DNA of 64,000 nucleotides, taken from positions 3,286,001 through 3,350,000 of the forward strand of contig CP091064.1 in NCBI GenBank assembly GCA_021907015.1. Direction: 5' to 3'. Each line of letters starts with the position of its first letter. Within the stretch, counting starts at the first letter, position 1. Shown here piece after piece: positions 19,653-40,454 of this stretch. The notes beneath the pieces were generated by a model. That model worked only from the letters and a program-made list of their open reading frames with translations. It was not told the origin of the DNA and did not search any database. The stretch is from Pectobacterium sp. PL152. Its GTDB lineage: Bacteria > Pseudomonadota > Gammaproteobacteria > Enterobacterales > Enterobacteriaceae. Both the position numbers and the translations under genes were made by a program.

Positions 19653-20664
19653 TTACAGACGCACCAGTTGCTTGCCAAAGTGTTTGCTGTCCAATAAGTC
19701 GATAAAGGCTTGGGGCGCATTCTCTATTCCCTCAATAATGTTCTCGCGATATTTTAATCTCCCTTTCTCCACGGCATCGAGTAGCCAAATGTCCGCTTCT
19801 GCGTAGTCTTTGAACCACTCGGTGACGAGAAAAAGCGGCTCAGAGGGGCTTCGGGTAAAGAAGAGAAAAATGCCACCGGGCTTGAGGCGTCAACCTCATT
19901 TCCTTGATTATAGATCGCCGCGCTGCCACAAACGGGGACTCTTGCGCCTTCGTTGAGCAGTTTGGCCACGAAAAGTGAGACTCTGCCGCCAACGTTTTCA
20001 AAATAGATATCAATCCCGTTAGGCAGGCGGCCCGCAAGGCTTGGTTTAAGTCATCTGCTTTATAATTAATGCAGGCGTCAAAGCCTAATGTGTCAACGAC
20101 ATAGCGACACTTTTCTTCGCTACCAGCCAGACCGACAACCCGGCACCCAGCCTGTTTACCGAGTTGACCGACGACGGATCCGACCCCCTGAGGCTGCCGA
20201 TACCACCAGCGTTTCTCCCGCTTTGGGTCTGGCTATTTTATTCAGACCAAAATAAGCGGAACGTCCCGGTGTTCCGACTACGCTGAAAAAATCGAAGGTG
20301 ACAGCGTCGTTGACGGTAGACGATGAGTAATAAAATCCTGCGGCGTACCGACATAATATTTCTGCCAGCCTGAAAAAGTGAACACGCAGTCCCCAACCTG
20401 AAAGTGTGGATTCTTCGTTGCTACAACGTAGCCTATCGTTTCACCTTGAATGACCTCGCCCTGTTTGATCGGGCTTACATAGGCCGTATTCTTGTTAAGC
20501 CGTGGACGCGTATAAAGATCAATGGATAACCATTTGTTTTCAATTAGATATTCTCCAGGTTGTAGTGCATTAATATGGCGTTCTTCGAACCTGAAATGCT
20601 CTAGCTGCACAGGGCCATCAGGATGGTGATCCAGTACAATCAGCTTGTTTTCTAACGGACTCAT
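19653..20664 (-). CDS. CurA-like NADPH-dependent oxidoreductase, frame disrupted
   Basis: Medium-chain dehydrogenase/reductase of the CurA / leukotriene B4 dehydrogenase type, which reduces activated C=C bonds with NADPH. Starting from MSPLENK at 20664, pieces in three frames join into the family order: an N-terminal domain (TIGYVVATKNPHFQVGD), the nucleotide-binding segment (VVSAASGG then VVGQLGKQAGCRVVG), DIYFENVGG, and the C-terminal EWFKDYAEADIW and HFGKQLVRL. At least three indels break the frame (near 20190, 20035 and 19880), so it is either a pseudogene or miscalled sequence. It lies 52 bp downstream of the membrane protein gene on the same strand, so it may belong to the NRPS-PKS operon. 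Confidence 0.75.
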
Positions 20665-20716
20665 AATATTCCCTATATTTATCATTTATTCGGTGATGCA
20701 CTACCTGTTGAGTGAC

Positions 20717-21343
20717 TCAGGAAGCGTTATCATGTGCGTGCGAGGTCCAACGATGCTTTGGCCACCGGAAACTGAAAATCACCAGCAGTAGCGTAAGCGG
20801 CCATCCGCTGATGAGGACAAGGGTATCCATCGGTAATCCGGGCTGGCGTGAAAGCAGGTAAATGATGATGGCTTTCACCAAGTAGACGAGAATCCAGACC
20901 AGTGACACTTCATTCCAGACTCTGACATACTGCGGCGTGCCATAAACGGGGAGCGTCTTAAGGTCTGGCGTAGCTTGTTCCGCCAGAATTTGTATGACCG
21001 GACGTCCCTTGATGCTGTAAATGGTAAAAATAATCACGGTGGAAAGTGCACCGCTGATCGATAAAAAGACACTCTCCTGATGGATACCAAGCAGCATTAT
21101 TCCTTCGAGATAAAGGTAGTGACTAAGCCCCGAAACCAGAATGAGTGCAATGATTGGCAGATAGCCCTGCCAACGGCTGAATAATTGCAGGATACCGGAA
21201 TAGATCGCGGTAATTAACAGCGCGCTGCCCGCCCCCGATTGTAAGAATGCGATGTTGTAAATAATGACCGGTATGATAATGGTCAGAAGCGCATCGCGTG
21301 ATATCAGATATCGCCAAACGGTTAACGACGGGGGATGGCCCAT
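20717..21343 (-). CDS. Polytopic membrane protein (VC0807-like), end of NRPS-PKS operon
   Basis: 208-residue protein with about six hydrophobic segments (roughly residues 15-35, 40-55, 62-82, 90-112, 148-168 and 175-195). The central IKGRPVIQILAEQATPD segment and the following aromatic-rich stretch resemble the VC0807 family of uncharacterised inner-membrane proteins. It lies 64 bp downstream of the C-A-T-TE NRPS on the same strand, so export or self-protection for the product is possible, but nothing here proves it. A strong hairpin lies between the two genes. Confidence 0.6.
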   Translation of the reverse strand: MGHPPSLTVWRYLISRDALLTIIIPVIIYNIAFLQSGAGSALLITAIYSGILQLFSRWQGYLPIIALILVSGLSHYLYLEGIMLLGIHQESVFLSISGALSTVIIFTIYSIKGRPVIQILAEQATPDLKTLPVYGTPQYVRVWNEVSLVWILVYLVKAIIIYLLSRQPGLPMDTLVLISGWPLTLLLVIFSFRWPKHRWTSHAHDNAS

Positions 21344-21369
21344 GTTTTCTCCTCGCTTACGTCATAAAG

Positions 21370-21402
21370 CCGCCGTTCTGGGTTTGAAACCACAGACGGC
21401 GG
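21370..21402 (-). repeat. Hairpin between terminal NRPS and membrane protein gene
   Basis: A near-perfect fold-back: CCGCCGT pairs with ACGGCGG around an inner GGTTT/AAACC stem. It lies just after the NRPS stop (21408). There is no T-run, so it may protect the upstream mRNA or attenuate the downstream genes. Confidence 0.6.
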
Positions 21403-21407
21403 ATGTG

Positions 21408-24400
21408 TTATCGCAATACTTTCTTGAGCTGTTCGGCTATACGCGAAATATGTGGGGCGTTCATCATTGAAATATGGTCGCCGGATGTCGGCAGTACCGT
21501 CAGGCAGCCTGACGTAAAGCGACTCCACCCCAGACCAGACTCCGGCAGGCGGATGCGGCCGGGCAAAATATCCTCCGCCTCGACGACCAGTACATCACCT
21601 GAGTAGGGCTCACTACGGTAAGCGTCCGTTGCATAGATATGGGTTTGCAGGATAGTGAGAAAATCTTGAAACGCTTTGGGTCCAATTGACTCAGGAACCA
21701 GCCCCGCCCGTTTAAATTCAGCCAGAAAGCGTGACGTGCGTTGTGCGTTGCTCATGTCTGCAAGTGACTGCTCTGACAGATCGAAAGACGTTCCGGTAAA
21801 CAGAGCCACTTTATGCGCAAAGTACGCCAGACGTTCAGTCTCGTGCATGTCTGCTGAACCGTCGATGTTGATCTCTGGAGCAGGTTGATCCAGGACTAAT
21901 ACCGTGGGGGTTATGCCTTTTGCCGCGAGTTGTTGTGACATTTCAAAGGCAATGGTTGCGCCGAGAGACCACCCACCCAGAACCAAACGAGAGTGATGAA
22001 CGATGTCGCCTGCCTGTGAGAGGTAGAACGCGGCAAGTGCTTTGATATCGGCGTTATAAGGCTGGTTGACGCTGAAATCAGGCACCTGAATACCGTAGAC
22101 GGGGTAGCTCTCGCCCAATTCACGCGCCAGCGCGGAATAGCACAGCACGTTACCGCCAGCTGGGTGGATCAAAAGCAACGTGGGTTTATTTTCTGGCTGA
22201 CCACGGTTGATTGTCACCCTTGCGGCTTGAGTCTGGGTTCCTTTTTCGTCAATCACACGCGCCAACTGCGCAATGCTGCTGTTTTCGAACAGTTGCCCCA
22301 GAGACAGAGAGGTGCCGAAGTGCTGATTAATGTTCAGGATGAGCTTTAATGCACTGAGAGAATTCCCGCCAAGCGTGAAGAAACTCTCCTGCGTATCAAT
22401 GGCATCGTTTTGTAAAATATCACGGTAAATGTCATGCAGGTCGCGTTCGCGCTGATTCTCTGGGGTATGAAGCGATTCGCGCTTTTCCGCTGAGGGCAGA
22501 GGTAACGCGGCATAGTTTATCTTACCGCTGGCGGTTAATGGCATCGCCTCTAGCCATACCCAGCGTTCGGGCTGCATATAGTCTGGCAGTTTCTTTTGCA
22601 GTGCTGCTTTTACCTCGGTCTGATGAGCGTCGGTAATACCGCACACATAGGCGGTTAAAACGGCTTCTCCGTGGGGAAGCGTGTTTTGTTTAATCGCTAC
22701 GTGAGTCGCATTAGCGACCTGTTGTAATGCCTGTTCGATCTCTGCCAGCTCAACGCGGTAGCCGCGCACTTTAACCTGGCGATCCAAACGGCCCATAAAT
22801 TCAAGATTGCCGTCAGGCAGGAAGCGACCTTTGTCACCGCTACGATAAAGCCGCTCACCCTCAAGGTAAGGGTGGGGGATAAAGCGTGTGTGATTTTGCT
22901 CCGGTAGGCCGATGTATCCTTCCGCCACATGTGAACCACCCAGATAAATTTCACCCGGCAGACCGGCAGGAACTAACTGGTGATAAGGATCGAGCAGCAG
23001 GACATGGCTATCGGACAGGGGTTTACCGATGGGTAAGTAGTCACCGGAGAGCGCGCTAAGATCCTCTGGTACCGGATAGGTAGTGACACCGACCGTACAC
23101 TCGGTTGGGCCATAATGGTTCAGAATGCGGCAAGGAGGATGGAACTCACGTACGCGTTTGATGAGCGACAGAGGAACGCGTTCTCCGCCGATGACCAACA
23201 ACTGACGAGGTAATAACGCCTCGGCCTGCGGTGACGTCAGTAATGTCGCTAAATGGGACGGTGTGATCTTGATACAATCGACGGGATAGTGCGCCAGATA
23301 AGCGAATAGTTTCTGTGGATCGCGGAGTAACTCCGTCGTGATTACGTCCAATTGGCCCTGATGGATCAGTGCGGGGAAGAGCACCGTGTGTGCCAAATCG
23401 GTGGTGAAGGATGAAAACATGCCGTAGCGGGCATCGGACGGTAGGTTGAGCACGGGCTGAATAGCCTGACAGTAGTGGCTTAGCTGTGAGTGTTTGACCT
23501 GAACGCCCTTAGGTTTGCCGGTACTGCCCGAGGTATAAATGATGTAAGCCGGACCATCCGTAATCTGTGGCTGCGATGGGTTGCTTACCGGCATCATACT
23601 GCGATTTTGTCTTACGTAGACGCAGGGGAGTATGTCACCGGGCGTCTGTTCGTCGATGATGACACAGCGGGCGGTAGAGTTTTGCAGGATGAACTCAACC
23701 TGTTGTGCAGGAAGCTCCATATCGACTGGGACATAGCATCCGCCTGCTTTTAACACGGCCAGAATCGCGACGACGTAATACTCGCTTTTAGGCATAAATA
23801 ACGCGACACACTCCCCATGAGCGAGCCCGTCTTTCTGTAGCTGATGAGCCAACTGGTTCGCCCGTTCATTGAGCTGAGCGTAGGTCAGTGTGCGTCCTTC
23901 ACAGCGAACCGCGATAGCATTCGGCCTCTGCTGTGCCTGTTGTTCAAACTGCCGATGAACGGTTGGTGGGAGCGTGTTAGCGGTTGGGCGGCATTGTGCA
24001 ATCGTCGCGCTACGTTCTTCGTCACCTAACAGCGAAATCTCCCGTACGGTGAGCTGCGGTTGGTTAATTAAGGTCTCAAGCATCGTCCGCAAGTCATTCA
24101 GCATGCGTTGGATGGTATTGCTGGAAAATAACGCGCTGCTGTAGTTCATGGTGAACAGTAGGCCGTCGCTATCTTTATCTTCTTCTACCCATAAGTTGAG
24201 ATCCAGTTTGGCCGTGCCGTAATCCACTTTTAACGGTTTATATTTGAACCCGCCATGGCTGCTGTGAAAATGGGGAAAGACCTGATACGTCAAGATTGCC
24301 TGGAAGATTGGATTGATCTGGGGATTACGCACATAGGTAATCTCATCCAGAATATAGTTGAACGGCACATCCTGGTATCTCAGGGTTTCTTCGCATTCGA

Positions 24401-25480
24401 CGCGTACGTCTTCAATCAGCGAAGCGATACTGGCATCAGGATCGATATCAAAACGTAGTGGTAGGGTATTCATGAATAGCCCCATCATGTTTTGCGTGGC
24501 AGATAAATTGCGGTTGGCAAACGGTGCGCCGATGATGATTTCCTGCTGCCCGCTATATTTATGCAGCAGGAGTTGGTATGCCGTGAGGATAACGTGGAAT
24601 TGCGTTGCCTGATGCCGTGCCGCACAGTTTTGCAAACGCTGGCAGAAAGAGGAGTCAAAGAACTGGCTTATGATGCCGCCTGCGGTGCTCATTTTAGCTG
24701 GACGAGGGAGTCCGTTGCCAGCTCTAACTGCCCCGTGATGCCGTCCAGCTTCTTCGCCCAGTAGGCAAGACCGGTTTGGTATTCGCCCTCGCTATACCAC
24801 CGATCTTCCGCCAGTGCGTAATCGGCAAACTGGAGCGTTTTCTCGATAGGTAATGTCCCTCCTTGCAACAAACGAAAATAGTTTTCCATCAGCATTTTGA
24901 AGAACACATTGACCGTCCATCCATCGGAAATAATGTGATGAAAAGTCAGGAACAGGACATAATCGTGCTGATGGGTTTTGGTCATATGGAGATAAACCAA
25001 TGGGCCATTCTCCAGATCAAAAACAATATTTCCTTTCGCTTTGGCCGTTTCTGAAACGTATTTTTCAATATCTTCTTCGCTGAACGCGGAGATATCCTCG
25101 AAGCTAAACGGAAAAGACATATCGTTGGCGATGTGTTGGCACACATCGTTATCGACCAGCCGGAATGTCGTACGCAGAATGTCATATTGTTGCATCAGAT
25201 AGTCGAGCGTTTGCTGTACGCGCCGCGGCTCCATGTCGTGCTCGATTCTGCAGGCAAGCACATACGGATTATTATAGACCAGGCTATCGTCAAGGTATTG
25301 GGAGAGCATCCAGATACGCTTCTGCGCGCTGGTCATGGGGAAATGGACTCTTCCTGGAGTTGCGTGCGGAGTAATGGTTTTACTTGAGGATGTATGGCTC
25401 GTTTTCTTCTTTTCTCTTGCCAGCTTTTTGAGTTCATCCAGGCTAAGCGAGGTCAGTTTTGCGGTGGGAAGCTGCGTCAT
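21408..25480 (-). CDS. Terminal NRPS, C-A-T-TE, Asp-type adenylation domain
   Basis: About 1358 residues once one lost base near 24708 is restored. The N-terminal helix has LSLDELKKLARE. The condensation domain has HHIISDG at residues 181-187. The adenylation domain has core motif YTSGSTGKPKG and later YRSGDKG and GYRVELAEIE. The carrier domain has LGGNSLSA. The thioesterase has GGWSLGA with its nucleophile Ser. Pocket residues by alignment to GrsA are D235 L236 T239 K278 V299 G301 H322 V330 plus the invariant Lys. This is close to the Asp code DLTKVGHIGK as I remember it. It should add Asp to the PKS-bound intermediate and release the product by hydrolysis or cyclisation. It starts 78 bp after the PKS. 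Confidence 0.88.
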
Positions 25481-25519
25481 TATCGAGTCTCATTTTGTGA
25501 CATTCGGTTTTTACAGCAG

Positions 25520-25553
25520 CGGCCGCCTTCGAGATACATACCGAAGGCGGCCG
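25520..25553 (-). repeat. Perfect 12-bp hairpin between PKS and terminal NRPS
   Basis: CGGCCGCCTTCG and its exact complement flank a 10-nt loop, between the PKS stop (25559) and the NRPS start (25480). There is no T tail. It is a candidate mRNA-stabilising or attenuating structure inside the operon. Confidence 0.7.
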
Positions 25554-25558
25554 TGCGC

Positions 25559-28500
25559 TTATTCCTGCAATAAGGTTTCCAGTTCAGTAAGGATCAGCGC
25601 TGCTAACCCTTGCACGGTCTGGTTCTGGTAAAACAGATCAACGCGGATATCGATTTCAAAGATGCCGGAAACGGTAGAAACGACCTGTACTGCCAGTAGT
25701 GAGTTACCGCCCAGTTCAGTAAAGCTGTCATTAACGCCGATACCCGAAATCCCCAGAATGGACTGCCAGACTTTGACGATCTCTTTCTCAATGTCATTTT
25801 CTGGCGCAACGTAATCCACAGAGAGAGCGGGTCTGGCATACCCTTCCGTAGCATCGCTATCCTGCAAGATGAATTCAGGCGTTTCCTGCTCAGGGATCGA
25901 CTCATAAATGAGCTGGTCCAGATCGCTGGTAACGACGACTAACTGTTCAAATTCCAGATGTGCGAGCTGGCGTTTTATTGCATCCAGCCCTTCTGGCAAC
26001 AGAATGTCTTTATCTGCCAGATTCACTTTTACTGCGGCTATCGCTGCCGTTGATGTGTTTTCGGATGTCGCGAGCTGGTTGCCCATCGTCATCTTCATCA
26101 GCGTGTAGTTTTCCAGTACCAGCAGCGGAACGCCCTCTGGTGAAAGGAACGTGATATCCATGACGATGGCGTTATCCTGCGGCTGATAAGCCTGCTTGAG
26201 CCTGGCGTGGACGTAGCACTCTTTCCCCAGTGGCGATAAGAAGGTCATCTTGCCATAGCTGATAGGCAGGAAATTCTCCTGTGTAATCAATGACAGGCAG
26301 GATATTGCCGTGGCATCAATCACTGCGGGATGGTACGGGTAGCGGGTAAGGTCGTGCGTATAGTCGTCCTTCAGCACTTTGTGTATCAGCCATTCGTTAT
26401 GGCCCTGAACGATCTCGCGGTGGTTGTTCCAGCGCTGGCTGAACGACAGGAAATTTTCGCCCGTGTTGGCATTATCCAGCTCAGTGATAAACGGCGCGTA
26501 GGGAACCTGCGTGGTGCAGCGTTGTTTAATGGCGTCAATCGATTGTGGTGTAAGGTCAGCCGTTGGGGCGCCGTGGCCGATTCCCCGAACGCGTGCTCTT
26601 GCCATGCCAGTTCAAGTACACCCCGAGTCTTGAGGCTGAATTTATAGCCTTTCCCTTCTGATGTGATGAATAGCCTCATCTGTCGTGGCCAGGTATCGGT
26701 ATAGATAACGGGCTTAGTCAGCATCAGATTTTTGACCTGAAGGCTTTCCTGAGGCTTAAAGCACGTCATGAACTCATGCAGCAGCGATAAGATTGTCGCG
26801 CCCACCAGTGAGGGCTGCTTCGCGAGGCGGTGCTCATCGATGACCCAGTCTTGCACGGTGAGATTGACCTGATAGCTTTCCTGCATGCCTTCGCGCTCAA
26901 GATAGGTCAGCAGGCTTCCTTTGGTTTCCTCAACAGCAGCCTGCTTGCTGTTTTTCTTCTCCTGTAACTGCTTGTCCCAACGGGCAGCCATTCCCACATC
27001 GCCCCATTTTCCCCAGTTCAGCGAAACGGTACGTCCGCGCCGGTGCTGGTTGCGGTAATGCGCAAACGCATCCATAAACGCATTACCCGAGCAATAATCA
27101 ATGCGGGCTTCGTCGCCGACAATGGAGGTGATGGAAGAGAATAAAATAAAGAAGTCAGGCTGTTTGTCCTGTAGCAGTTCATCCAAAATGAGCGAACCTG
27201 CGACTTTGGGATCGAGCACGTTGGCGCAATCGGCGTCATTTTTCAGCGGAATGATGCCGCCGCCGGCTACACCTGCGGTGTGGAACACCCCGTCGACCTG
27301 CGGGAATGCGGATAACATGTCACGCATACCGTGATAGTCATTCACGTCGACCTGTGCCAGATGTATCGTGTTACCACGGTCTTCCAGACGTAAAACGCTC
27401 GCCAGTTTCTCACTGATAGGATCGTCAACCGGATGCTGTTGGATCCAGGCTTGCCACTCTTCACGCGGCGGTAATGCGGCACGGTAGGTCAGAATGATCG
27501 TAGCACGACTTTTTCTGACAGATGATTGGCGAGTAGTAACCCTAATCCGCCGAGGCCGCCGGTGATGAGGTAGACGCCGTCGTCTTTCAAGTCCGCAGGT
27601 AAACCGAGATCGTCCTGTTTCAGATGGACGGCCTGATAACTTTCTTCCCAGCGCTGATTGCTGCGGTAGGCCACCAGATTACCGTGTGTTGCAATATGGC
27701 TTTCTGCTATCAGGCTGTGGGCAAATTCATCAAGCTGTACGGCGTTTTGTTTAAGATCGATATCCACCAGATGGCATTGGACTTCAGGGTATTCGTGATA
27801 GAACACGCGTGAAGGCCCTACCAGCAGCGCATTCTCTGGGGAAGCGATGCGCTCGCCCATTACGCTGAATGTGTTGCTGGTGGCGAAAGTGATATGTAGA
27901 TCGTCCAGCAAATTCTCATTCACCAGTGCCTGCTGGAGATAGAGCGCAGGGTAGAACGTATTCAGCGGTGAGGAGAGATAGGTGTGCTCAAGCGGCTGTA
28001 CCTGTTCTTCTGCCGTCAGGTTCCATAAATACAGGATACGCGATGGACGTAGCCCTTGCTCCGTCAGGCTTTTCAGTAACCGGACATAGTCGGCGCGTGA
28101 AGCTACGTTGAGGGTATATCGGTCTTCGGAAAGCGCTTCCTGATACTGCGTTCCCGGGCTGACGAAAAGACCTTATGCCCATCCTTTTCCAGTATCTGTT
28201 TCGTGCGTTCGGCGATGCCTTGTGTATCCGTCAGGAGCAACCAGCAGGTGTTCTCGGTTTCAACGCGTTTACCCGCCATGTATTTCGCTGGAATGGTTTT
28301 TTCCAGGTCGGCATATAGAACCAGTCACCGATATCGGCATGTTTCCGCTTTTTAGCCTTAACGGATTGTTCACTCTGCGCGTCAGAGCTGGCTGACGACA
28401 GCGCCGGCAGGGCGAAGCGTTTACGTTCGAAAGGATAGCCGGGCAGCGGGATGCGGCGACGGTGCTGTTCTGAATGACGCAGATGCCAGGGAACGTCTAC

Positions 28501-31181: not shown

Positions 31182-31460
31182 TTAAACGTGAATTACTTTT
31201 GCTACCCGCGATTTCAGCAGTAATCCGGCTGATGATACTTTGCAGGCCAGATGCTGACGGATGTTGCAATGATGCTTTGATTGAAACAGGAATAGCAGGA
31301 ACAGACTTTGTCCCCAATATTTTCTGACATAAGGGAGGACTTTCTGGCCAATCGCATAATAGTTAGCGGGCTTGGATGAATTTTGGTGACTCAGTACAAC
31401 TTTAATTGCCGAAGCCACCTTCGCTTTTACTGCTGCGGAATTCAATTGATTTGCAGACAT
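31182..31460 (-). CDS. Small basic protein of unknown family, upstream of the PKS
   Basis: Starts MSANQLNSAAVKAKV at 31460 behind AGGTGG; an extension to 31505 lacks support. The open frame gives 92 residues, but the second half after VRKYWG is hydrophobic then Cys/His-rich and looks unnatural. The next frame instead reads LGTKSVPAIPVSIKAS and ends at 31177 in a Ser/Lys-rich tail, which looks more protein-like. A one-base error near 31320 is possible. I do not recognise the family: it is not MbtH-like and has no carrier-protein Ser motif. Its position directly before the PKS suggests an accessory role or a docking partner. Confidence 0.5.
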   Translation of the reverse strand: MSANQLNSAAVKAKVASAIKVVLSHQNSSKPANYYAIGQKVLPYVRKYWGQSLFLLFLFQSKHHCNIRQHLACKVSSAGLLLKSRVAKVIHV

Positions 31461-31537
31461 GGTATTACCACCTATTATCAGTGAAATAAGGATGATGAAA
31501 TGCATTACCCATTACAGGGCGGTTATTCCCCTGGAGC

Positions 31538-31665: not shown

Positions 31666-31684
31666 GATACGCTTTTTGGCGTAA

Positions 31685-33474
31685 TTACTTCTTGCTGCTT
31701 GATTTCCCAGCGTGTATTTCGCTAATACGTTTGCTTAGCATCTGTACCGTTGGGTATTGGAATAAATCAACAATAGAGATCGGTGACTCTATTTTTTTTT
31801 TATTTCGCGATAAACCTTGGACATCAACAGGGAGTTTCCTCCTGCATCGAAGAAATTCTCTTGAATGGAGACCTTCGGATTATTGAGTACGGTCCGCCAG
31901 ATAGAAATAATATTTTTTCTATCTCGGAAGGTAATATTGCTTTGTCATTTGACATTTTTCACCATTAGTTATTTGCATAGGAACACAGTTTGATTTATCA
32001 ATTTTTCCATTGGGATGCGTGGGCATTTTTTCCAACGCGACGAAATGGGAAGGCACCATGAAGAAAGGCAGCATCTTGGCAAGGTGTGCTTTTATCTCCT
32101 GAATATCGATGCGCTTTTGATGCCGTAGTACATAAAACGCGGAGAGCGATGGCGCTGCGCTTTCCGGGCGTTTTTCGAGAATAACGGCGGCGTGGTTAAT
32201 TTGTGGCAGCGCCTGCAAGTGCGTTTCTATTTCCGCCAGCTCAATACGGTGTCCGCGTAATTTAACCTGACTGTCTATGCGGCCAATGAACTCCAGCACG
32301 CCATCGGCCCGCTGCTTAACCCAGTCACCGGTTTTATACATTTTTGCCCAGACTGATGGCTAAACGGATCATCGACAAATCGTTCCTGTGTCAACTTTTC
32401 CGCATGCAGATAGCCTTTGGCCAGAATATCTCCTGCCAGATAGAGCTCGCCGCTTTCTCCGACATCGACAGGCTGCTGCGCTTCATCCAGCACATAGGCG
32501 ATGGCGTGCGGGATTGGTCTGCCAATCGGGGCGATTTTTTCTTCTGCTTCCGGTTGGCAGAGCCAGTGGCAGGCAAATATTGTGGCCTCGGTTGGGCCGT
32601 AGAGGTTGTGGATTTTCCCTGGATATTGCAGGGAAAGATCGTTAACCAGCGTTTGATCGAGCACTTCGCCGCCAGAAAAGATATGGCATAGGGATGTGCA
32701 GCGGGATAGCACGTGCGCATCAACAATGACGCGCAGTGCCGTCGGTACGAACTGCGCCACCGTGACCTGATGGCGGCACATAAATTCTGCCAGTAACAGC
32801 GGATCGTACTTGGCGTCCTCGGTGATCACCGCACAGCTGGCACCAGCGATCAGCGGCCAGAAAATTTCCCACACCGAGACGTCAAAACTGAACGTGGATT
32901 GATTAAGGACAACGTCTTCGTGATGCAGTCCGAAGGCGTTTTGCATCCACACCAGGTAATTGATCACCGTGCGATGGCTGACCATGACGCCCTTTGGCGT
33001 TCCGGTAGAACCGGAGGTATACATCACGTAGCACAGGTCTTCCTCGCTGACGGTGGGAAGCGCTGGGGTAGCCTGTGTGCTCAGATCGAGCTGGTTGATG
33101 TCAACGATCTCACGGTGGCCCGGTGCCAGCTTAAGCGCGTGTTCATCGTCAGTGATCACCAGACGTGCATCGGCATGATTGACCATATAATCCAGACGTT
33201 CGTGTGGATAGTAAGGATCAAGCGGTAAATAGCATGCTCCGGCTTTCAATACGCCGAGCAGGCTGACGATCAGATTCGGGCTTTTATTCAAATAAATACC
33301 GACAACATCCTGTGGCTTTACGCCCCGTTGCAACAGCGCGCTCGCCATGGCGTTCGCACGCTGCTCCAATTGCCGATAGGTCAATGTTTCGGTATCGCTT
33401 CTCAGGGCGATGGCGTCCGGCGTCTGATGCCACTGCTGTTCAAATAAGGTATGGAGCACTCTTGCCGATGCCAT
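31685..33474 (-). CDS. Two-domain NRPS, A-T, frameshifted
   Basis: About 597 residues after repair. Start MASARVLHTLFEQ at 33474. The adenylation domain has YTSGSTGTPKG, YGPTEAT, YKTGDW and the catalytic PNGKIDK. The carrier domain, found in another frame, has FFDAGGNSLLMS and ends at 31685. Indels are near 32341 (A run) and two around 31915-31935. Pocket residues by alignment are D235 V236 W239 Q278 F299 G301 L322 I330. This is nearest in memory to a Gln-type code (DAWQFGLIDK) but not a firm match. It has no condensation domain of its own, so the divergent A-T-C protein could supply it, or this could be the loading module. It lies 102 bp downstream of the DUF2589 gene. Confidence 0.83.
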
Positions 33475-33576
33475 GGTCTGATCCTCTGGTGATGCCAGGG
33501 AGTCACGCCGGGCATCCTTTTACGCGTTATGCAGGTACGGCACACATGGGCTATGCCGCTGAATAATGTTCTTTGC

Positions 33577-34218
33577 TTATGATGACGCTTCTTGCTGCTC
33601 CGCAGACGCAGGTGGGGTGGCGTTTTCCGCAGCTTGTGGCGTGCTTTCCCCATTGGGAATACTGGGCCTGATTGCGGCATCGGTCAGAAAATCGATGACG
33701 CGCATGAGCGCCTCAGGCGCAGGTTGACGTTTTACCTGCGTGTGAATGCTGTATTTGGCACGCGTGTCCGTCGCTCGGGTTTGCGCTGACTTGTGTGATA
33801 CCCGACCGGCCATTTTGACCTTGAAAGCTCCCCATCCCAGTGAAGCCGCCAGATTGCCGTCTTCTCCGGTGTCATCGGATGACGATTCACTCTGCGTTAC
33901 CTCAAGCTCGAAATCGATTGTCCCTTCTTCAATAGAAATAATCGGATGGGTAATGGCGGCAATGAGCGGTATGCGCATCGTTTTTGTCACCGCGCCTTTT
34001 GCGACTCCGCTTTCATCAATAAGCGTTTCGTCATAATCAAATTGAATAGCGACCGCTTTATTATTCTGAATGCATACGGATAATAAAAAATCCGTATAGG
34101 CTTTGCTGGCTTGAACCTGTGCGTTAATCATTGCCTGTAAAGGCCCGCTAATCATATTTTCCAGCGGTAACGCATTAATAACCGAACCGATAAATTGTGA
34201 ATCCATCGGAACCTCCAA
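33577..34218 (-). CDS. DUF2589-type protein, first gene of the minus-strand operon
   Basis: 213 residues from 34218, or 209 from MDSQFIGS at 34206. The N-terminal PLENMISGPLQAMINAQ and the mid-protein IPLIAAITHPIISIEEG segment fit DUF2589, a family of unknown function predicted to form a beta-rich domain after an amphipathic helix. A low-complexity Ser/Asp/Glu stretch follows near residue 115, then a basic region and a Pro/Ala/Glu tail. There is no signal peptide. A second protein of the same type lies at 38843-39407 beside lysozyme and holin-like genes, tying both flanks of the NRPS genes together. Function unknown. Confidence 0.72.
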   Translation of the reverse strand: MEVPMDSQFIGSVINALPLENMISGPLQAMINAQVQASKAYTDFLLSVCIQNNKAVAIQFDYDETLIDESGVAKGAVTKTMRIPLIAAITHPIISIEEGTIDFELEVTQSESSSDDTGEDGNLAASLGWGAFKVKMAGRVSHKSAQTRATDTRAKYSIHTQVKRQPAPEALMRVIDFLTDAAIRPSIPNGESTPQAAENATPPASAEQQEASS

Positions 34219-34531
34219 TTATCTGCGAATAGGGTGTGATGCACTGTCAATAAAAAATAGCAAAGGGAAGGGAAAAAAATACCCGTCAGGGTACGAGGGG
34301 ACTTTCGCATTCTGGCATAGTCCCTTTGGTATATAGGCAATAATGTCTTTTATTTGTTAAACCCATACTCAGGCATGCGCGTTATTTTATGTGTCTTTCC
34401 TGGTATTAGCATGACGAACCCATCGTTACGTGTTCTCATTTTTACAGCATTCATTTTTCACCGTGTGAGATACCGGACGTCGCGTTAGAACCATTCCCGC
34501 AAAAAGCATCCTTTTACAATATGGAAGGAAA
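34219..34531. promoter_or_regulatory. Divergent promoter region of the NRPS-PKS cluster
   Basis: 313 bp between the DUF2589 gene (minus) and the A-T-C NRPS (plus). It is AT-rich and must hold both promoters. An AAGGAAA ribosome site precedes the ATG at 34532. I could not assign specific hexamers or an operator with confidence, and there is no gene in it. Confidence 0.5.
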
Positions 34532-37500
34532 ATGATGAAGAATAGAAAAACGATCGTTGAAATTATCTCTGAATGGTCACTGAAAAGCCCCGATAGGACG
34601 GCGGTGGAATTTAATGGCGACAGGCTGAACTATCAACAAGTCGAATCACAGTCACGTCTTTTGGCCGACTATCTGTTATCACACTACCCGAATAATAAAC
34701 GTGGCAGAATTGCCGTCTATCTGGAACCTGGGGTCATGATGCCCGTGGTCTTACTGGCTATTTTAAAAGCTGGGTATACCTATGTTCCGCTCTCACATTT
34801 TCATCCGTCAGAAAGAATCATTCAGATCCTTGATGACTCGTCGGCATTTTTACTTATTTCCACGCGTTCGATGGTAAATAAAACGGCTATCGATAACGTT
34901 TTTTCCTCTACGCTCGTACTAGAGGATATTCATTATCCGGTTGAACCGGTCGCTGTGCTGCCACCCGTTTGTGAAAACGATCTCGCCTATATTCTCTATA
35001 CCTCCGGCTCTACCGGGAAGCCAAAAGGGGTGGCCATTGAGCACCGGAACCTGAGTTATTATCTGAACTGGTTTAATGAGGATGTGTGGCCAGCGACGCG
35101 AGCGACGCTCCCTCTGACATCGTCACTCAGTTTTGCCGCCGCCGTGACACAGCTTTATGCGCCTTTATTACGTGGCGACACCCTGTTTATTTTGCCCGCC
35201 GATAGTTTGAATGAACCGGACGTTTTATTACGCTGGCACCAACAGCATCCGGATGGCGCCATTTACTGCGTGCCGACCGTTTGGGATGAACTGCTGCGCT
35301 ATCAGGCGACCTCTTCTCACGCGTGGGCGTTACCCAAAACCGTTTTCTCTCTGGCGAACCCGTCTCTTTTGATTTAAAAGAGCGCACGTTCCAGCAGATC
35401 CCGGATGTCAGGCTTTTTTAATCTGTATGGCCCGACGGAAACAACGGCCAACTGCTCGTTCACCGAATTGGTACCGGGAAAAGGTGTAACGCTCGGTAAA
35501 GCGCTGCGTGGTAGCGAAATTCTGATTGTGGATGAGAATCTGCGTCCCGTGGCTGAAGGGGAAGAAGGGGAAATTTGTGCCTTTGGGAAGGTGTCGCCCG
35601 TGGCTACATTAATCGCGACGAATTAACGCAGCAGCGTTTTTTCAGCCATGTGCGAGCCGGTAAAAGCGACTGGGGACATCGCACCGGCGATCTGGGAAAA
35701 AGGACGCCGGATGGGGAGATCGTGTATCTGGGGCGTATCGATCGCCAGATTAAGATTAATGGTATTCGTATCGAGCCCGAAGAGATCGAAATCGCGTTAC
35801 GTCAGCATGGCGATATCGACAAAGCGCTGGTGCGGCCGATGCAGGAAAATGGGCGTCAGCGTCTGGTGGCCTATCTGGTCAGTCGTAACCCGTCGCTTGC
35901 CGCGAACGATCTGCGCCGCTTCTTGCAGAACAAACTGCCGCGAGCGATGCATCCGTCCCATTTTATTATGCTGGAAACTCTACCCAAACTGCCTAACGGG
36001 AAATTGGATGTGAGCCGGCTGCCTGCGCCTTGTCCGCAGCGCCCTGAGTTAGGATATCCGGTTAAAACCGCAGGCAATGAGCTGGAACAGGAACTGATTG
36101 ATATCTGGCAGGAAGTGCTTGGTTTTCGTGAACTCGGTGCCAACGATAACTTTTTCGATTTAGGGGGCGATTCGCTTCAGGCGATGAACGCCAGGCTACT
36201 GATTCGAAAACGACTGTTTAGCGACATTGATTACCCGTTGTTTTTCAACAACGCAACGCCCCATCTGTTGGCTTTCATCGTCCCTTACTATGTTAACGAT
36301 GACGATCCCACGTTTGACGAGGGGACAACGGAGATTGAGGCGCTCACTCCGTCATCGCAGCAGCGTTATTTCCTGACGCTGGATCAGCTCAGTCCAGAGC
36401 CGTCGGTCTATCAATTGGCTTTTCGCCTGACGATAGACGGTACACTGGATGAATCTGCCGTGGAATGGAGTCTTGGGCGTATTCTGGAAGGCAATCCGGT
36501 ATTGCGGACGCGTTTCGATCTGGATCGTCTGCAATGCCTTGAGGGGGATTATCCAATCGGAGCGATCCCGATTGAACGACTGACGGCTTTCTCTCCCGGT
36601 GGGCTGGCGACGACGCTGAGCGACCGACAGCTGCTGGAGCTGGTCAATACGCCAGAGATGGATTTAGAACATTCGCCGCTCATCTGTTTTCATCTGATTT
36701 CGCTGACGGCGCAGCGACATATTCTGCTGGGACGTGTGCACCATACGGTATTCGATCATGATGCCATTGGCTTGTTTTTCAATCAGTTTATTGATTACGT
36801 CCGTGCTTATAGTGCCGGCGATCGCAGCTATCGAATAGGCAGTGAGGAGCGCTATCTGCGCTATCGTCAACAGCAACGGCGTACCAACGATCAGTGCTAC
36901 CCAAGAGAGCGGCAGTTCTGGCTGGATAAAATGGAGGATTACCTGACGGCGGGTGCCGATGCGACGGCGTTTCCTCTTAGTGAAAGTCAGGAGGGAGAAA
37001 ATTATTGGTGTATTTTGTCTGATTCGTTAACGCAGGCGATCAAGCACTATGCCCAGCAGCATCGCACAACGCCATTTGTCTGCATGCTGACCGCTTTTAC
37101 TCTGCTGCTCAAAACCACAAACTACCGCCATGTGCCCATCGGTATTCCGGTGTCGAACCGTATGCTGGCGGACAACGCTACCACGATAGGCTGTTTCGTT
37201 AACATGGTGACGTACTACGATGATGCACCCGCGCAGGCGTCTTTCAGCACGCTTTTGGCCCGTAGCCAGAGTAAGATCCATGCCATTTTGGACAATCAGA
37301 CGCTGCCCTATGATGTGTTAATGACCGACGTTCGGGCTAAAGGATGGTCTGATAAGCTGCGTTTCCCCGTCAGTTTTAACTATCTGACCGCTATGCCGCC
37401 GGCCGTGCAGGTCAATGAGACTGAATATCAGATCGCGGATATTGCCAATCATCAGGCCCGGCTGGATTTGACGCTCTCTGTTTATGACGATGACGCACTG

Positions 37501-37629
37501 ACGCTGTGTTTTAATTATCAGCAGGCGGCGTTTAACGCGGAAGAGATTACCGCGCTGTCTCAGCAGTACCATCACATCCTCATGGATATCGTACAGCCAA
37601 ACGCAACGCCCTTGTACGGCAACCCGTAG
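34532..37629 (+). CDS. NRPS A-T-C with atypical adenylation domain, frameshifted
   Basis: About 1032 residues after repair of three indels (a loss near 35355, an extra T in the run at 35414-35419, a lost G near 35588). The adenylation domain has YTSGSTGKPKG, LYGPTETT and PNGKLD. In the pocket the residue at GrsA position 235 is Ala (SLSFAAAVTQ) instead of the Asp that binds the alpha-amino group, so the substrate may not be an ordinary alpha-amino acid. The carrier has LGGDSLQA. The C-terminal condensation domain has HHTVFDHDA in place of HHxxxDG, keeping both His and the Asp. It would couple its own tethered unit to the amino acid on another carrier, plausibly the A-T protein. It is divergent from the main operon. 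Confidence 0.85.
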
Positions 37630-37640
37630 ATAATGCTAGC

Positions 37641-37670
37641 GAAGGCGCCTGAACAGCGGCGCCTTCTCTG
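37641..37670 (+). terminator. Hairpin after the A-T-C NRPS
   Basis: A perfect 9-bp stem (GAAGGCGCC / GGCGCCTTC) with an 8-nt loop lies 11 bp after the stop codon. It lacks a strong T tail but is likely the transcript end. Confidence 0.6.
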
Positions 37671-37874
37671 AAAGGGCTGACACGTAGACGTTGGTTTGAT
37701 TAGTCATGCATTGATGAGGTACTTGAACTCGTCGGAAGGATAAAGCGGTAGCGGGAAGGCCGCGAGGTGCCTTCCTGCTATATGAGCGACTTACGGCTGA
37801 GAACCGGTATTCTTGAGAACGTTGACTGGCGAGACTAATTGCTGATGAGAATAGCTCTTGGTGAGAACCATGCG

Positions 37875-38306
37875 CTAATGGTCTGACGGGGTCTTGTCAT
37901 CGGGTGTTTTTTCCCGAGCCTCATTGATCGAATGCACGCCTTTTGTCGCCTGCTTGATTTCCGACGCGACATCCAGGATGTCGTTATTCTCCCGATAGCT
38001 GAAGAAATTTGCCAGCAGCGTAACCAGGCCTACGCTAATCGCACCAACCAGATAACCTAATCCTATTGCATTCTCCACTTTATTGATGTTTACGTGCAGT
38101 AATTCGGCAATAATACCGACCAATGAGAAAGCCGCTGAAATACTGATGGTGATGATAATTAATATAGCGACAAATTTGTCATAATTATTCAGTTTCTGCG
38201 GGCGCCAAAAGAAGGAGATACTGAGGCCACCGAATAATCCTGAAATTGATGCAATAATGTCGCTGATCAAAATGCCATAGATAAGAGGATATGTTGAAAG
38301 ATCCAT
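37875..38306 (-). CDS. Three-TM holin-like membrane protein
   Basis: 143 residues with three hydrophobic helices (about residues 6-32, 45-69 and 79-103) and a charged C-terminal tail (YRENNDILDVASEIKQ and onward). This topology matches class I holins. No family signature is recognised, so the holin call rests on topology, size and adjacency. The gene lies 57 bp downstream of a lysozyme gene on the same strand. A holin could release that signal-less enzyme across the inner membrane. Other small membrane proteins remain possible. Confidence 0.5.
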   Translation of the reverse strand: MDLSTYPLIYGILISDIIASISGLFGGLSISFFWRPQKLNNYDKFVAILIIITISISAAFSLVGIIAELLHVNINKVENAIGLGYLVGAISVGLVTLLANFFSYRENNDILDVASEIKQATKGVHSINEAREKTPDDKTPSDH

Positions 38307-38362
38307 AATGTGTCCATGATGATATTTTCTATGAGATGATTATTTTCGCGTTTTGTTGGATA

Positions 38363-38824
38363 TTAGTTCGGTGTGACAGGTGTTAGGAACAGTGTTCTTT
38401 CTGCTTCTCTGCGGCGCAGAAGTCCTTCTACAACTTGTTCGCCATCTTTATCCCAGCGTGGAAATTGATCGGCAGCTGCACCATAGTTACCCTGATTTAG
38501 CAGGCGTAATAATGTCGATGTTTCCAGATTTTCTACGCCGAGGTTGTAGGTAAATGACGTTAGTGCACCAAATTGGTTTCCGTTGAGATCCACGTTCACA
38601 TAATGCTGTACACCGGTTTCCGCCGTCTTTAAGTCCTGACGTAACAGTAAGTCGGCTTCCTGAAGAGTAATACCGTTATCAAAATTTTCATCTGGAAGTA
38701 TTAAATGTCCATACCCAATGGTCCATCTGCCTGCGGTATCGAGATACTTTGTTAATTTCAGTCCTTCAAAGCTCTTAATGAGATCGAGACCAGCTTCATT
38801 GATCGTTTCAGGAATGTTAGCCAT
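38363..38824 (-). CDS. T4-type (GH24) lysozyme / endolysin
   Basis: 153-residue muramidase that cleaves the MurNAc-GlcNAc bond of peptidoglycan. The E-8-D-5-T catalytic triad is exact: E20, D29 and T35 (SFEG, YLDTAG, RWTIGYGH). There is no signal peptide or signal-anchor at the N-terminus, so it needs a holin-like path to the wall. The neighbouring three-TM protein could supply this. No other phage structural genes are nearby, so it is not part of an intact prophage. It is followed upstream by a DUF2589-type gene. Confidence 0.88.
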   Translation of the reverse strand: MANIPETINEAGLDLIKSFEGLKLTKYLDTAGRWTIGYGHLILPDENFDNGITLQEADLLLRQDLKTAETGVQHYVNVDLNGNQFGALTSFTYNLGVENLETSTLLRLLNQGNYGAAADQFPRWDKDGEQVVEGLLRRREAERTLFLTPVTPN

Positions 38825-38842
38825 TATTTTTTTCCTCTTGTG

Positions 38843-39407
38843 TTATTTGGGGAGAACGAGATTGGTATAGTCATCAATTAATCGCATGAGGCTTTCCGGA
38901 GGTTCGAGCGCAGTGAACTGCATTTCTATATCGACGTGCTGACTATTTCTGCCTTTTTGTTTTTGCCTGAAGGCGACATACTGACGTGAAAATTACTGAT
39001 GTTATAATCGTCTAAAGGTGAGGCTATTTCGTCCTTACTTACCGCATCGGTTCTCACCGTCATTTGCACTTTCATTTTTCCAGCATCAACCCCTTGGGGT
39101 GGAAAGGGCAACCAGCGGCAGTTCGACGTGGTGTCGGGAATCGAGTTGAATAGAAATTGTCTTTGGGGTTAACGCGCCATCAGCACCACGTTCAAAAAAA
39201 AGGATCGAGCGTTTGCTGGTATTGGTGAGCGATAAATTGATTGGCAGCGGTAGCGGCATGCTGCATGCCGCGAGCGATATCTGCTAATGTTAACGCCTTT
39301 GATGATGACGTCACTTTATCGTTTAACGTGGAATGCGGATTTTCCCTTGGGAGGGATCGACATTCTCTGGTTTTTATTTTTCCCGTTATCCAATTTTTGA
39401 ATGACAT
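38843..39407 (-). CDS. Second DUF2589-type protein, frameshifted
   Basis: About 188 residues across three frame changes. Start MSFKNWITGKIKTRE at 39407, then LTLADIARGMQHAATAANQF (helix). In the next frame come FERGADGALTPKTISI and VELPLVAL, then GVDAGKMKVQMTV, and finally DIEMQFTALEPPESLMRLID. This order matches the protein at 33577-34218 (GPLQAMINAQVQ, IPLIAAI, PEALMRVID). One break is an extra base in an eight-A run (39194-39201). It lies just upstream of the lysozyme and is probably co-transcribed with it. Function unknown. Confidence 0.6.
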
Positions 39408-39839
39408 ACTTTTTCCTTATCTTATTTCCCGGGTGATAAAAATAAAATCATGAAGGGAAATAAATGACGATTTGGGAAAACGTTAACAGTTAAGGAGAGT
39501 GAAATACATCAGTCATTTTGTTAGCGATGTCATGTAATATGACATAGGCCATTTATTTCTTTTTTAAAATCCATTGCGCTAAATATTTTATGCACTCATG
39601 AAATCATTACTCCATCAGATCTTATTTTAAGATAATATTTCATTGCTAATGATATTCCTCTTTGAGGGTTTTTGACTGAAGTTATTATGTCAGTATGTTC
39701 GAGTAAATATAGATGTGTCTATAAGGTAAACGGCATATGCCAAATGGCGTGACATCATATCTTTCAAGATAGGCTAAAACTTCTTAGAGGGCATTTTTAA
39801 ATATGGCATTTTAAAATAAAGGTAAATGGAGATTGCACA
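39408..39839. promoter_or_regulatory. AT-rich intergenic region before the LuxR-type gene
   Basis: 432 bp, strongly AT-rich, between the divergent DUF2589-lysozyme genes and the regulator. It must hold promoters for both directions. I see no coding sequence, RNA or clear repeat. A TTGACT at about 39672 is a possible -35 for the regulator without a clear -10. Confidence 0.4.
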
Positions 39840-40454
39840 GTGAATGTTCTTATTATTGACAAATCCCCTGTTTTCATTCAGGGCTTATCTGTTGGGCTGA
39901 ATGATTTTATGCACGATGTCAATATTGTTGGCGTAAAGGAAATTGACGATGTATGGCCTTGCCTTGAGAGGATGAAAAACGCTTTTATTTTACTAAATTG
40001 TAATAAAGAAAATGGAGAGTACAGTTTTTTCCTGGAAACTCTGCATGAGAAATATATTGGCGTCAGTGTGATTATTATGGTTGATTCTATTGAAAGACAT
40101 ATTTTGAATAACTATCTGAAACACCATGTTATGGGGGTCGTTCTTAAAACATCGCCCGTTGATTCTATTGCTCAGGCATTAAAAACCGTGTCGATGGGTA
40201 TGGTCTGTTTACCGGATGATGGCGTGATCTATGAAGGGTGGAGTGTTGATAACAGTGTAAAAGGAAAACTGAGTGAGAGGCAGCATGAGGTTCTGCAACT
40301 GATTGCATTAGGCGCTTCTAATAAACAAATTAGTCGGACATTAAACATCAGTGCAGGAACCGTGAAGTCGCATTTGGAGTCGATTTTCAGGCGACTTAAT
40401 GTGCGTAACAGAACACAGGCTGCGATCGTACTATTAGAAGAAGAACGAAGATAA
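39840..40454 (+). CDS. LuxR-family regulator with degenerate receiver domain
   Basis: 204 residues from an ATA-free frame whose start codon is GTG at 39840. The N-terminal 120 residues have a receiver fold (MNVLIIDKSPVF). The phospho-acceptor position is Asn (N53 in ILLNCN) where Asp is expected, while the conserved Lys (VVLKTS) is kept. The C-terminal LuxR/GerE helix-turn-helix has LSERQHEVLQLIALGASNKQ and AGTVKSHLESIFRRL. It probably works without phosphorylation, for example by constitutive dimerisation or ligand binding. Position at the right edge of the island makes it the best candidate regulator of the NRPS-PKS and lysozyme genes, by inference only. Confidence 0.82.
   Translation: MNVLIIDKSPVFIQGLSVGLNDFMHDVNIVGVKEIDDVWPCLERMKNAFILLNCNKENGEYSFFLETLHEKYIGVSVIIMVDSIERHILNNYLKHHVMGVVLKTSPVDSIAQALKTVSMGMVCLPDDGVIYEGWSVDNSVKGKLSERQHEVLQLIALGASNKQISRTLNISAGTVKSHLESIFRRLNVRNRTQAAIVLLEEERR

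What the first reader, a model, noticed from the sequence alone, without database searches (positions are those of the whole stretch)
19653..40454. Compact hybrid NRPS-PKS island between tRNA-Leu and initiator tRNA-Met
About 21 kb between leuU and metY holds three NRPS proteins (A-T-C, A-T, C-A-T-TE), a one-module PKS, two DUF2589-type proteins, a small unknown protein, a holin-like and a lysozyme gene and a LuxR-type regulator. E. coli has argG and yhbX here. I do not recognise the gene set as a described pathway (not coronafacic acid, zeamine, oocydin or carbapenem). It is bounded by tRNA genes but I see no integrase or att repeats.
Basis: partly seen in the sequence, partly recalled or inferred. 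Interest (0 to 1): 0.8.

Follow-up and report, generated by a model that had tools for sequence, protein, structure and literature searches.

The report
Antibiotic-type gene cluster beside a lysis-like cassette
A soft-rot bacterium carries a gene cluster, undescribed as far as we could find, for a small peptide-polyketide compound, interleaved with a conserved cell-wall-cutting cassette that in relatives sits beside quite different toxin-like products, which suggests an exchangeable release system.

Summary
The island is real. Between tRNA-Leu (19505-19591) and tRNA-Met (40760-40836) lie two separable modules.

(1) An NRPS-PKS core: A-T-C; free A; free T; KS-AT-KR-DH-T; C-A-T-TE; a membrane protein. 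It recurs in Brenneria, Xenorhabdus, Prodigiosinella, a Serratia MAG, Vibrio, Marinomonas and Shewanella with nearly invariant substrate codes. I found no description in the papers searched.

(2) A cassette of LuxR, DUF2589 pair, phage-type lysozyme and three-TM protein. Its DUF2589a gene is in all 13 NRPS islands found among 25 Pectobacterium genomes; the full cassette was read in three of these and in named relatives. At the same site in two others it accompanies a streptolysin-S-like TOMM operon; elsewhere, an RNase-A-like protein.

My reading: a T10SS-like, exchangeable release cassette. Modularity is shown; release is inferred; no spanin was recognised and the holin is unproven.

Here 8 of 13 island genes are frame-broken. 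Most breaks are one-base deletions at homopolymers, also seen in flanking essential genes, as in sequencing error; their excess in the island leaves real decay possible. Intact copies elsewhere are under purifying selection.

The parts
19505..19591 (+). tRNA-Leu (gag), left border; similarity to five relatives with a short site ends within 50-200 bases after it
19656..20685 (-). ADH_N_2 / zinc-type oxidoreductase, 345 aa in relatives; frame-broken here
20717..21343 (-). 208-aa membrane protein, VC0807-family match far below the cut-off; found with the core in most of the other loci; intact
21408..25480 (-). NRPS C-A-T-TE (about 1357 aa in relatives), A-domain code of the Asp/Asn type (key recalled); two ORFs here
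25559..31054 (-). type I PKS KS-AT-KR-DH-T (1833 aa in relatives), malonyl-type AT motif; six frame changes here
31182..31505 (-). small carrier-like protein without the phosphopantetheine serine (90-120 aa in relatives); frame-broken here
31690..31955 (-). stand-alone carrier (T) protein, 90 aa in relatives; frame-broken here; low end approximate, inferred from relatives
31991..33474 (-). stand-alone adenylation domain (503 aa in relatives), Gln-like code (key recalled); frame-broken here; range of the aligned pieces
33577..34218 (-). DUF2589 protein a (213 aa), intact
34532..37629 (+). NRPS A-T-C (1032 aa in relatives); A domain lacks the Asp that binds an alpha-amino group; frame-broken here
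37875..38306 (-). three-TM protein (143 aa), holin-like by topology only; intact
38363..38824 (-). phage-type lysozyme (153 aa) without a hydrophobic segment; the only PF00959 match in this genome; intact
38817..39407 (-). DUF2589 protein b (197 aa in relatives, where its end overlaps the lysozyme start by 8 nt); frame-broken here; low end inferred from relatives
39840..40454 (+). LuxR-type (NarL/FixJ-like) regulator, 204 aa; intact
40760..40836 (+). tRNA-Met (cat), right border

Best explanation
Two modules share the leuU-metY site. Module 1 is an undescribed hybrid NRPS-PKS assembly line. Inferred order: the A-T-C protein loads a starter without an alpha-amino group; its C domain joins it to an amino acid (Gln-like code) loaded by the stand-alone A onto the stand-alone T; the PKS adds one malonate and reduces (and perhaps dehydrates) it; C-A-T-TE adds Asp/Asn and releases a short peptide with a gamma-amino acid in the middle. 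Module 2 is a regulated release cassette: a LuxR regulator, a DUF2589 pair, a signal-less phage-type lysozyme and a three-TM protein. By analogy with type 10 secretion, the three-TM protein lets the lysozyme reach the wall, so that the cell, or a subset of cells, releases the product; the DUF2589 pair is a constant but unexplained partner. Shown: gene content, modularity, different cargos beside related cassettes, purifying selection. Inferred: the product, the exchange of cargo, and the release step.
For: Core conserved in order and substrate code across genera. The 12 other Pectobacterium islands have C-A-T-TE open frames of 1359-1368 codons, and dN/dS is low in six named relatives. Of 9 genomes searched that hold the core, both Brenneria have DUF2589 and 0 of the 7 others do; an MFS-type gene was seen in the six of those 7 whose loci were listed. 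DUF2589a accompanies the NRPS-PKS in 13 of 25 Pectobacterium and a TOMM at the same site in 2 of 25; related cassettes accompany an RNase-A-like protein in G023, G132 and G167. The two TOMM cassettes group together (100/98) inside the Pectobacterium clade, with the Brenneria NRPS cassette outside it. In 15 chosen DUF2589-bearing genomes, all 11 that have a Phage_lysozyme gene have one within about 5 kb of DUF2589, and in 5 it is the genome's only one. DUF2589b and lysozyme ORFs overlap by 8 nt in 9 of 9 NRPS/TOMM cassettes. The lysozyme has no hydrophobic segment. Holin/endolysin/spanin release of toxins and chitinases is reported for Yersinia and Serratia (PMC10847048, passages).
Against: No holin-family match for the three-TM protein and no spanin recognised. 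Cassette and NRPS may be mere neighbours at an insertion hot spot; in other genera the cassette stands without a biosynthetic cluster within the stretch read. A small metabolite should not need wall lysis to leave the cell, and the core keeps its own membrane protein. The DH motif is atypical. Of 21 non-island DUF2589 loci fetched, 13 showed neither lysozyme nor pesticin in the searches made, which were not exhaustive. In the cassette tree the NRPS cassettes do not form a clade of their own, the root is by midpoint and long branches are flagged. In this genome most of module 1 and DUF2589b are broken as sequenced.
Confidence: 0.42

Rival explanations
1. Hot-spot neighbours: leuU-metY is an insertion hot spot, and the NRPS-PKS and the DUF2589/lysozyme cassette are independent passengers with no functional link.
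For: The site holds unrelated content in other strains: a VgrG-like region in G003 (by eye), an integrase-like fragment (by eye) and acyltransferase/thioesterase fragments in G021, a rearrangement in G012, and short sites in 5 of 25. Related cassettes stand alone in other genera.
Against: In Pectobacterium DUF2589a at this site was never seen without a biosynthetic cluster (15 of 15); it lies between A-T-C and A; the two TOMM cassettes group together although their hosts' rimP genes differ in identity to this genome (99% and 95%); cassette, A-T-C, DUF2589a, A and T sit together beside metY in Brenneria salicis, up to a contig end.
Confidence: 0.3
2. The cassette is an antibacterial effector set of its own (lysozyme and, elsewhere, RNase with their immunity proteins), delivered by DUF2589 proteins; the NRPS-PKS merely adds another weapon.
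For: RNAse_A_bac matches, over the Pfam cut-off in G132 and G167 and below it in G023, with small TM or signal-bearing partners in the same cassettes; pesticin-type lysozyme beside DUF2589 in two other loci; a C39-peptidase ABC exporter beside a DUF2589 pair on Vibrio plasmid pVDT1.
Against: No lysozyme-inhibitor domain among the island ORFs scanned with Pfam; the lysozyme lacks a hydrophobic segment; no match to a known delivery or defence system in the libraries tried.
Confidence: 0.2
3. In this particular strain the island is decaying and makes nothing.
For: 8 of 13 genes frame-broken; frameshifting gaps 26 in 18.9 kb of island coding DNA against 9 in 28.6 kb of flank (binomial p 4e-5); 9 in-frame stops inside aligned island pieces (5805 codons) against 2 in the flanks (9299 codons), and dN/dS of the island pieces 0.113, a little above the 0.08-0.09 of the synthetases among intact relatives; a decayed copy exists in G006.
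Against: 33 of 35 gaps are single-base, 33 of 35 are deletions and 28 of 35 lie near a homopolymer of 4 or more (background 12%), and gaps also occur in 6 of 31 flank genes, glmM- and obgE-like genes among the broken ones: the signature of sequencing error. Intact copies elsewhere are under purifying selection.
Confidence: 0.3

Closest known systems
Type 10 secretion systems (holin/endolysin/spanin lytic cassettes of Serratia and Yersinia; PMC10847048 passages, PMC9527704 abstract)
   Same: Small regulated cassette with a phage-type peptidoglycan hydrolase without a hydrophobic segment and a small multi-TM protein, next to toxin-like cargo.
   Different: No spanin recognised, three-TM protein has no holin match, a DUF2589 pair is constant, cargo includes small-molecule clusters.
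Hybrid cis-AT NRPS-PKS clusters that make gamma-amino (vinylogous) residues, such as syringolin/glidobactin (recalled, not tested against sequences)
   Same: A-T feeding a KS-AT-KR-DH-T module, release by TE, LuxR-type regulator nearby.
   Different: Separate A-T-C, free A, free T and C-A-T-TE proteins; no desaturase seen; Asp/Asn-type last module.
Solanimycin cluster of Dickeya (PMC9765074, abstract and passages)
   Same: Hybrid PKS/NRPS of a soft-rot enterobacterium, reported to spread by horizontal transfer.
   Different: Trans-AT SolA with four KS domains, SolE acyltransferase, P450, 40.3 kb; this one is a single-module cis-AT PKS.
Streptolysin-S-type TOMM clusters
   Same: Comparator only: G007 carries SagB, SagC-like, YcaO and a Cys-rich precursor beside the cassette; G011 a similar operon.
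   Different: Not present in this window.

Membership tests
Hybrid NRPS / cis-AT type I PKS cluster | A, C, T, KS, AT, ACP and TE domains in one cluster | tested here: met
   Pfam on intact relative L048; pieces in the window
Hybrid NRPS / cis-AT type I PKS cluster | Open reading frames in this genome | tested here: not met
   8 of 13 genes broken as sequenced; artefact likely but not proven
Type 10 secretion system | Peptidoglycan hydrolase without a Sec signal | tested here: met
   Phage_lysozyme E 1.4e-43, PHROG endolysin, no hydrophobic segment by hydropathy
Type 10 secretion system | Holin | tested here: inconclusive
   Three hydrophobic segments in 143 aa; only a weak PHROG of unknown function (E 0.024)
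Type 10 secretion system | Spanin pair | tested here: inconclusive
   No cassette protein scanned matched one; small or embedded ORFs were not scanned
Type 10 secretion system | Cassette-dependent release of cargo | not testable with these tools
   Needs mutants
Solanimycin-type cluster | Trans-AT multimodular PKS with free acyltransferase | tested here: not met
   AT is inside the single-module PKS; sol architecture read in passages
Integrative element at a tRNA | Integrase gene and att repeats | tested here: not met
   No integrase domain in the ORFs scanned, no repeat joining the ends; integrase-like fragments by eye in G003 and G021
Known anti-phage defence system | Match to PADLOC models | tested here: not met
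   Of 10 proteins, only matches in the helix-turn-helix part of the LuxR protein and one marginal match of the carrier-like protein (E 0.0018)
Syringolin/glidobactin family | NRPS-PKS proteins homologous to SylC/SylD and a desaturase | not tested
   Reference proteins not fetched; comparison is recalled

The most novel reading that the evidence does not exclude
The LuxR/DUF2589-pair/muramidase/three-TM cassette is an undescribed bacterial release or delivery system whose constant part is the DUF2589 heteropair and whose cargo is exchanged between chemically unrelated weapons: a nonribosomal peptide-polyketide, a streptolysin-S-like ribosomal peptide and a secreted RNase.
Probability: 0.35. Interest if true: 0.82.

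Novelty: new variant of a known kind. Interest (0 to 1): 0.62.

Why it matters
DUF2589 is a family without a known function: one paper of the library names it, in passing. Linking it to muramidases and to differing weapon-like cargos makes its function directly testable. It would also join small-molecule clusters to lysis-type release, which the papers seen here describe for proteins. Separately, a hybrid NRPS-PKS with nearly invariant substrate codes in eight genera (Pectobacterium, Brenneria, a Serratia MAG, Prodigiosinella, Xenorhabdus, Vibrio, Marinomonas, Shewanella) and no product I could find in print is a good target for discovery.

Tried and rejected
Solanimycin: rejected by architecture. 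Att repeats: none joining the ends; a typed generic tRNA-Leu 3'-end pattern gave no match and does not fit this tRNA's end, so it was dropped. Phage origin of the cassette: DUF2589 had one weak match (E 5e-4) among 50,697 phage records and the three-TM protein none. Defence system: PADLOC gave nothing specific. DUF2589 in solved structures: only chance-level matches. Plasmid-borne relatives of DUF2589a: 4 records; the nearest, Burkholderia stagnalis (71.6%), sits on a 3.2-Mb replicon with no annotation in the stretch, and its ORF list showed a DUF2589b relative but no lysozyme, LuxR or three-TM match. The reading 'frameshifts are as frequent in the flanks' was not excluded by frame-change counts (11 against 8, p 0.10) but is by gap counts (26 against 9, p 4e-5), so I dropped it. 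The reading 'every cassette groups with its cargo' holds for the TOMM and RNase types only.
Full report
WHAT IS THERE. ARAGORN finds tRNA-Leu(gag) at 19505-19591 and tRNA-Met(cat) at 40760-40836. Pfam on separate ORFs of the window gives condensation, AMP-binding, carrier, thioesterase, ketosynthase, acyltransferase, KR and DH pieces, an oxidoreductase N-terminus, DUF2589, phage lysozyme and a LuxR-type regulator. The window lies in a one-contig genome of 5,019,495 bases. The same interval in two relatives where all 13 frames are open (G004 and G024) gives the intact gene order from metY to leuU: LuxR 204-217 aa, DUF2589b 197, lysozyme 153, three-TM 143, A-T-C 1032 (opposite strand), DUF2589a 213, A 501-503, T 90, small protein 90-105, PKS 1833, C-A-T-TE 1357-1358, membrane protein 208, oxidoreductase 345 (domains).

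DISTRIBUTION IN THE GENUS. Of 25 genomes of the genus searched, 13, this one included, carry the C-A-T-TE protein at 85% identity or more. From the positions of the flanking genes all 13 lie between leuU and metY. The other 12: G007 and G011 hold the cassette with a different operon; G006 holds decayed remnants of the island; G003 holds a VgrG-like region (by eye) and G021 acyltransferase/thioesterase fragments, each with an integrase-like fragment by eye; G015, G018, G019, G022 and G023 are short (about 1.9-2.3 kb from secG to rimP); G012 is rearranged (44 kb, flanks in opposite orientation); G014 ends in contig breaks. Island content does not follow the flanks: G011 is 99% identical to this genome at rimP but has the other cargo, and G020 is 99% at rimP but 91% in C-A-T-TE, against 97% and 95% for G004. 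In Brenneria salicis the cassette, A-T-C, DUF2589a, A and T lie beside metY up to a contig end, and the PKS part is on another contig (L027).

THE CORE CLUSTER IS WIDESPREAD. A scan of named genomes with the KS piece returned 26 loci. Of these, 22 are in Pectobacterium, Brenneria, a Serratia MAG, Xenorhabdus, Prodigiosinella, Vibrio, Marinomonas and Shewanella. The PKS protein is 59-79% identical outside Pectobacterium, and A-T-C, A, T, PKS and C-A-T-TE keep their order, A-T-C being inverted in Pectobacterium and Brenneria; L027 is cut at a contig end. A match to the 208-aa membrane protein was found in 19 of the 22, often cut by the end of the locus. The other four loci (Planctomycete, Myxococcales, Verrucomicrobial and Thermoanaerobaculia MAGs) are distant and lack that order. 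In six non-Brenneria loci outside Pectobacterium whose ORFs were listed, an MFS-type gene of about 530 aa follows C-A-T-TE (Pfam on one). Of nine core-bearing genomes searched for DUF2589, both Brenneria have it and the seven others do not.

PREDICTED CHEMISTRY. A-domain codes, read by motif anchors with the key recalled, are almost the same in all genera examined. A-T-C lacks the aspartate that binds an alpha-amino group in 21 of 21. The free A reads DVWQFGLIF or DIWQFGLIF in 20 of 20 read. C-A-T-TE reads DLTK[V/I]GH[V/I]G in 21 of 22, with one Shewanella exception. I read these as a starter without alpha-amine, a Gln-like residue, and Asp/Asn. The AT has a malonyl-type motif; the DH motif departs from the textbook form although the His and Asp appear by eye to be kept. 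The likely product is a starter acyl group joined to a gamma-amino acid and then Asp/Asn; this is inference. The small protein between T and PKS is related to carrier proteins (profile comparison probability 92%, E 8e-7) but has no serine at the attachment site, and it has the highest dN/dS of the 13 genes.

IS IT ALIVE? Among six named Pectobacterium with intact copies every island gene has mean pairwise dN/dS between 0.03 and 0.31; the synthetases lie at 0.08-0.09 (15 pairs per gene, 10 for the small protein). In this genome ADH, C-A-T-TE, PKS, small protein, T, A, A-T-C and DUF2589b are frame-broken, 8 of 13. Against the intact relative I counted 26 frameshifting gaps in 18.9 kb of island coding DNA (7 of 12 genes) and 9 in 28.6 kb of flank (6 of 31 genes); 33 of 35 are one base long, 33 of 35 are deletions and 28 of 35 lie near a homopolymer of four or more, where chance gives 12%. 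The flank breaks include glmM- and obgE-like genes, named by eye and essential by general knowledge. That is the signature of sequencing error. Against it stand the island's excess (p 4e-5), the nine in-frame stops inside aligned island pieces against two in the flanks, and a dN/dS of 0.113 for the island pieces (0.034 for the flanks). Island homopolymer density is only slightly higher. I leave the state of this copy undecided and say only that intact copies exist.

THE SECOND MODULE. DUF2589a at 89% identity or more is in 15 of 25 genomes: the 13 NRPS islands, G007 and G011. I read the full cassette in this genome, G004 and G024 of the 13, in the named Pectobacterium and Brenneria loci, and in G007 and G011. 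In G007 a TOMM operon follows: SagD/YcaO and SagB over their NCBIfam cut-offs, a SagC-like protein below its family cut-off but with a leader-binding domain over the cut-off, an AvrRpt2-type protease-like protein, and a precursor whose streptolysin-S match is weak (E 0.0097, below the cut-off) but which ends in a Cys-rich stretch. G011 has ORFs of like size and order; its YcaO match is 86% identical but is flagged with two stops. YcaO of this kind occurs in these 2 of 25 only. In G023 a more distant cassette (DUF2589a 71% identical) lies between sucD- and cydA-like genes (by eye), with an RNase-A-like protein (Pfam below cut-off, but E 7e-37 to that of G132), a small TM protein and a signal-bearing protein. 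The same set occurs in two other genera (G132, G167; RNAse_A_bac over the cut-off in both), and a related cassette in G096 lies beside a tRNA-Leu, with the three-TM gene truncated. A tree of concatenated cassette proteins (12 rows) puts the RNase-type cassettes in one clade (100/100), the two TOMM cassettes together (100/98), and the Brenneria NRPS cassette outside the Pectobacterium ones (96/99). The simplest reading is that the TOMM replaced the NRPS-PKS beside a cassette that stayed. The root is by midpoint, the NRPS cassettes do not form one clade, some forks are weak and long branches are flagged.

DUF2589 AND MURAMIDASES. DUF2589 occurs in 6 of 149 genomes of the family and 19 of 295 of the order, this genome counted in both. 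The five others of the family sample carry two matches each. Twelve of the 18 others of the order sample have two or more adjacent DUF2589 genes; five of the remaining six have beside it a member of a second family, in one only weakly (E 1e-4), and the sixth was not fetched. Of 21 non-island DUF2589 loci fetched, 8 have a phage-type or pesticin-type lysozyme nearby; the other 13 showed none, but they were not scanned exhaustively. In 15 DUF2589-bearing genomes that I chose, partly because a lysozyme had been seen, 11 have a Phage_lysozyme gene and all 11 have one within about 5 kb of DUF2589; in five it is the only one in the genome. DUF2589b and lysozyme ORFs overlap by 8 nt in 9 of 9 NRPS or TOMM cassettes; in the three RNase-type ones the overlaps by longest ORF are 62, 62 and -3 nt. 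On Vibrio plasmid pVDT1 a DUF2589 pair lies beside a C39-peptidase ABC exporter. DUF2589a and the three-TM protein have almost no phage relatives.

HOW IT MAY WORK. Type 10 secretion uses a holin, an endolysin and a spanin to release toxins by lysis of specialised cells (PMC10847048, passages read), and non-lytic holin transport is also discussed (PMC9527704, abstract and outline). The cassette has the endolysin-like part and a possible holin, an own regulator, and varied weapon-like cargo; spanins were not recognised and the DUF2589 pair is extra. I therefore say it works like a T10SS but do not file it as one.

LITERATURE. DUF2589 is named in one paper of the library, in passing (passage). 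Searches for the cluster in Pectobacterium, Brenneria, Xenorhabdus and Vibrio showed no description in their listings (TOMM search). The passages shown of a Pectobacterium antimicrobial survey (PMC6963963), a Pectobacterium pangenome (PMC8045196), a marine genome-mining paper (PMC4359443) and a Vibrio europaeus pangenome (PMC13249269), which says the ecological role of its PKS-NRP hybrid families must be elucidated, do not identify this cluster. Supplementary files and most subscription journals were not searched, so a prior description cannot be excluded.

Noticed in passing
window 9979-11161 and 17459-18889: obgE-like and glmM-like genes (named by eye), essential by general knowledge, are frame-broken in this assembly, so other frameshifts of the genome should be treated with caution.
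   Followed up: partly
window 31182-31505; L022:9544-9861: A carrier-like protein without the phosphopantetheine serine lies between T and PKS; full matches were seen only in Pectobacterium and Brenneria. It may be a decayed duplicate or a non-catalytic scaffold.
   Followed up: partly
L058 and L059: A streptolysin-S-like TOMM operon stands in place of the NRPS-PKS at the same site in two Pectobacterium genomes; the one listing searched showed no paper on it.
   Followed up: partly
L143 (Vibrio sp. 16 plasmid pVDT1): A DUF2589 pair and a 91-aa partner sit beside a C39-peptidase ABC exporter and a HlyD-type protein.
   Followed up: partly
L083, L084, L117-L132: DUF2589 genes of other kinds come with an 83-124-aa partner family or a 226-279-aa partner family, sometimes with pesticin-type lysozyme.
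   Followed up: partly
L057 (G003): The leuU-metY site of another Pectobacterium holds a VgrG-like region and an integrase-like fragment, both by eye.
   Followed up: no
L060 and L061 (G012): The secG-leuU and rimP flanks lie 44 kb apart in opposite orientation, suggesting an inversion with an end at this site.
   Followed up: no
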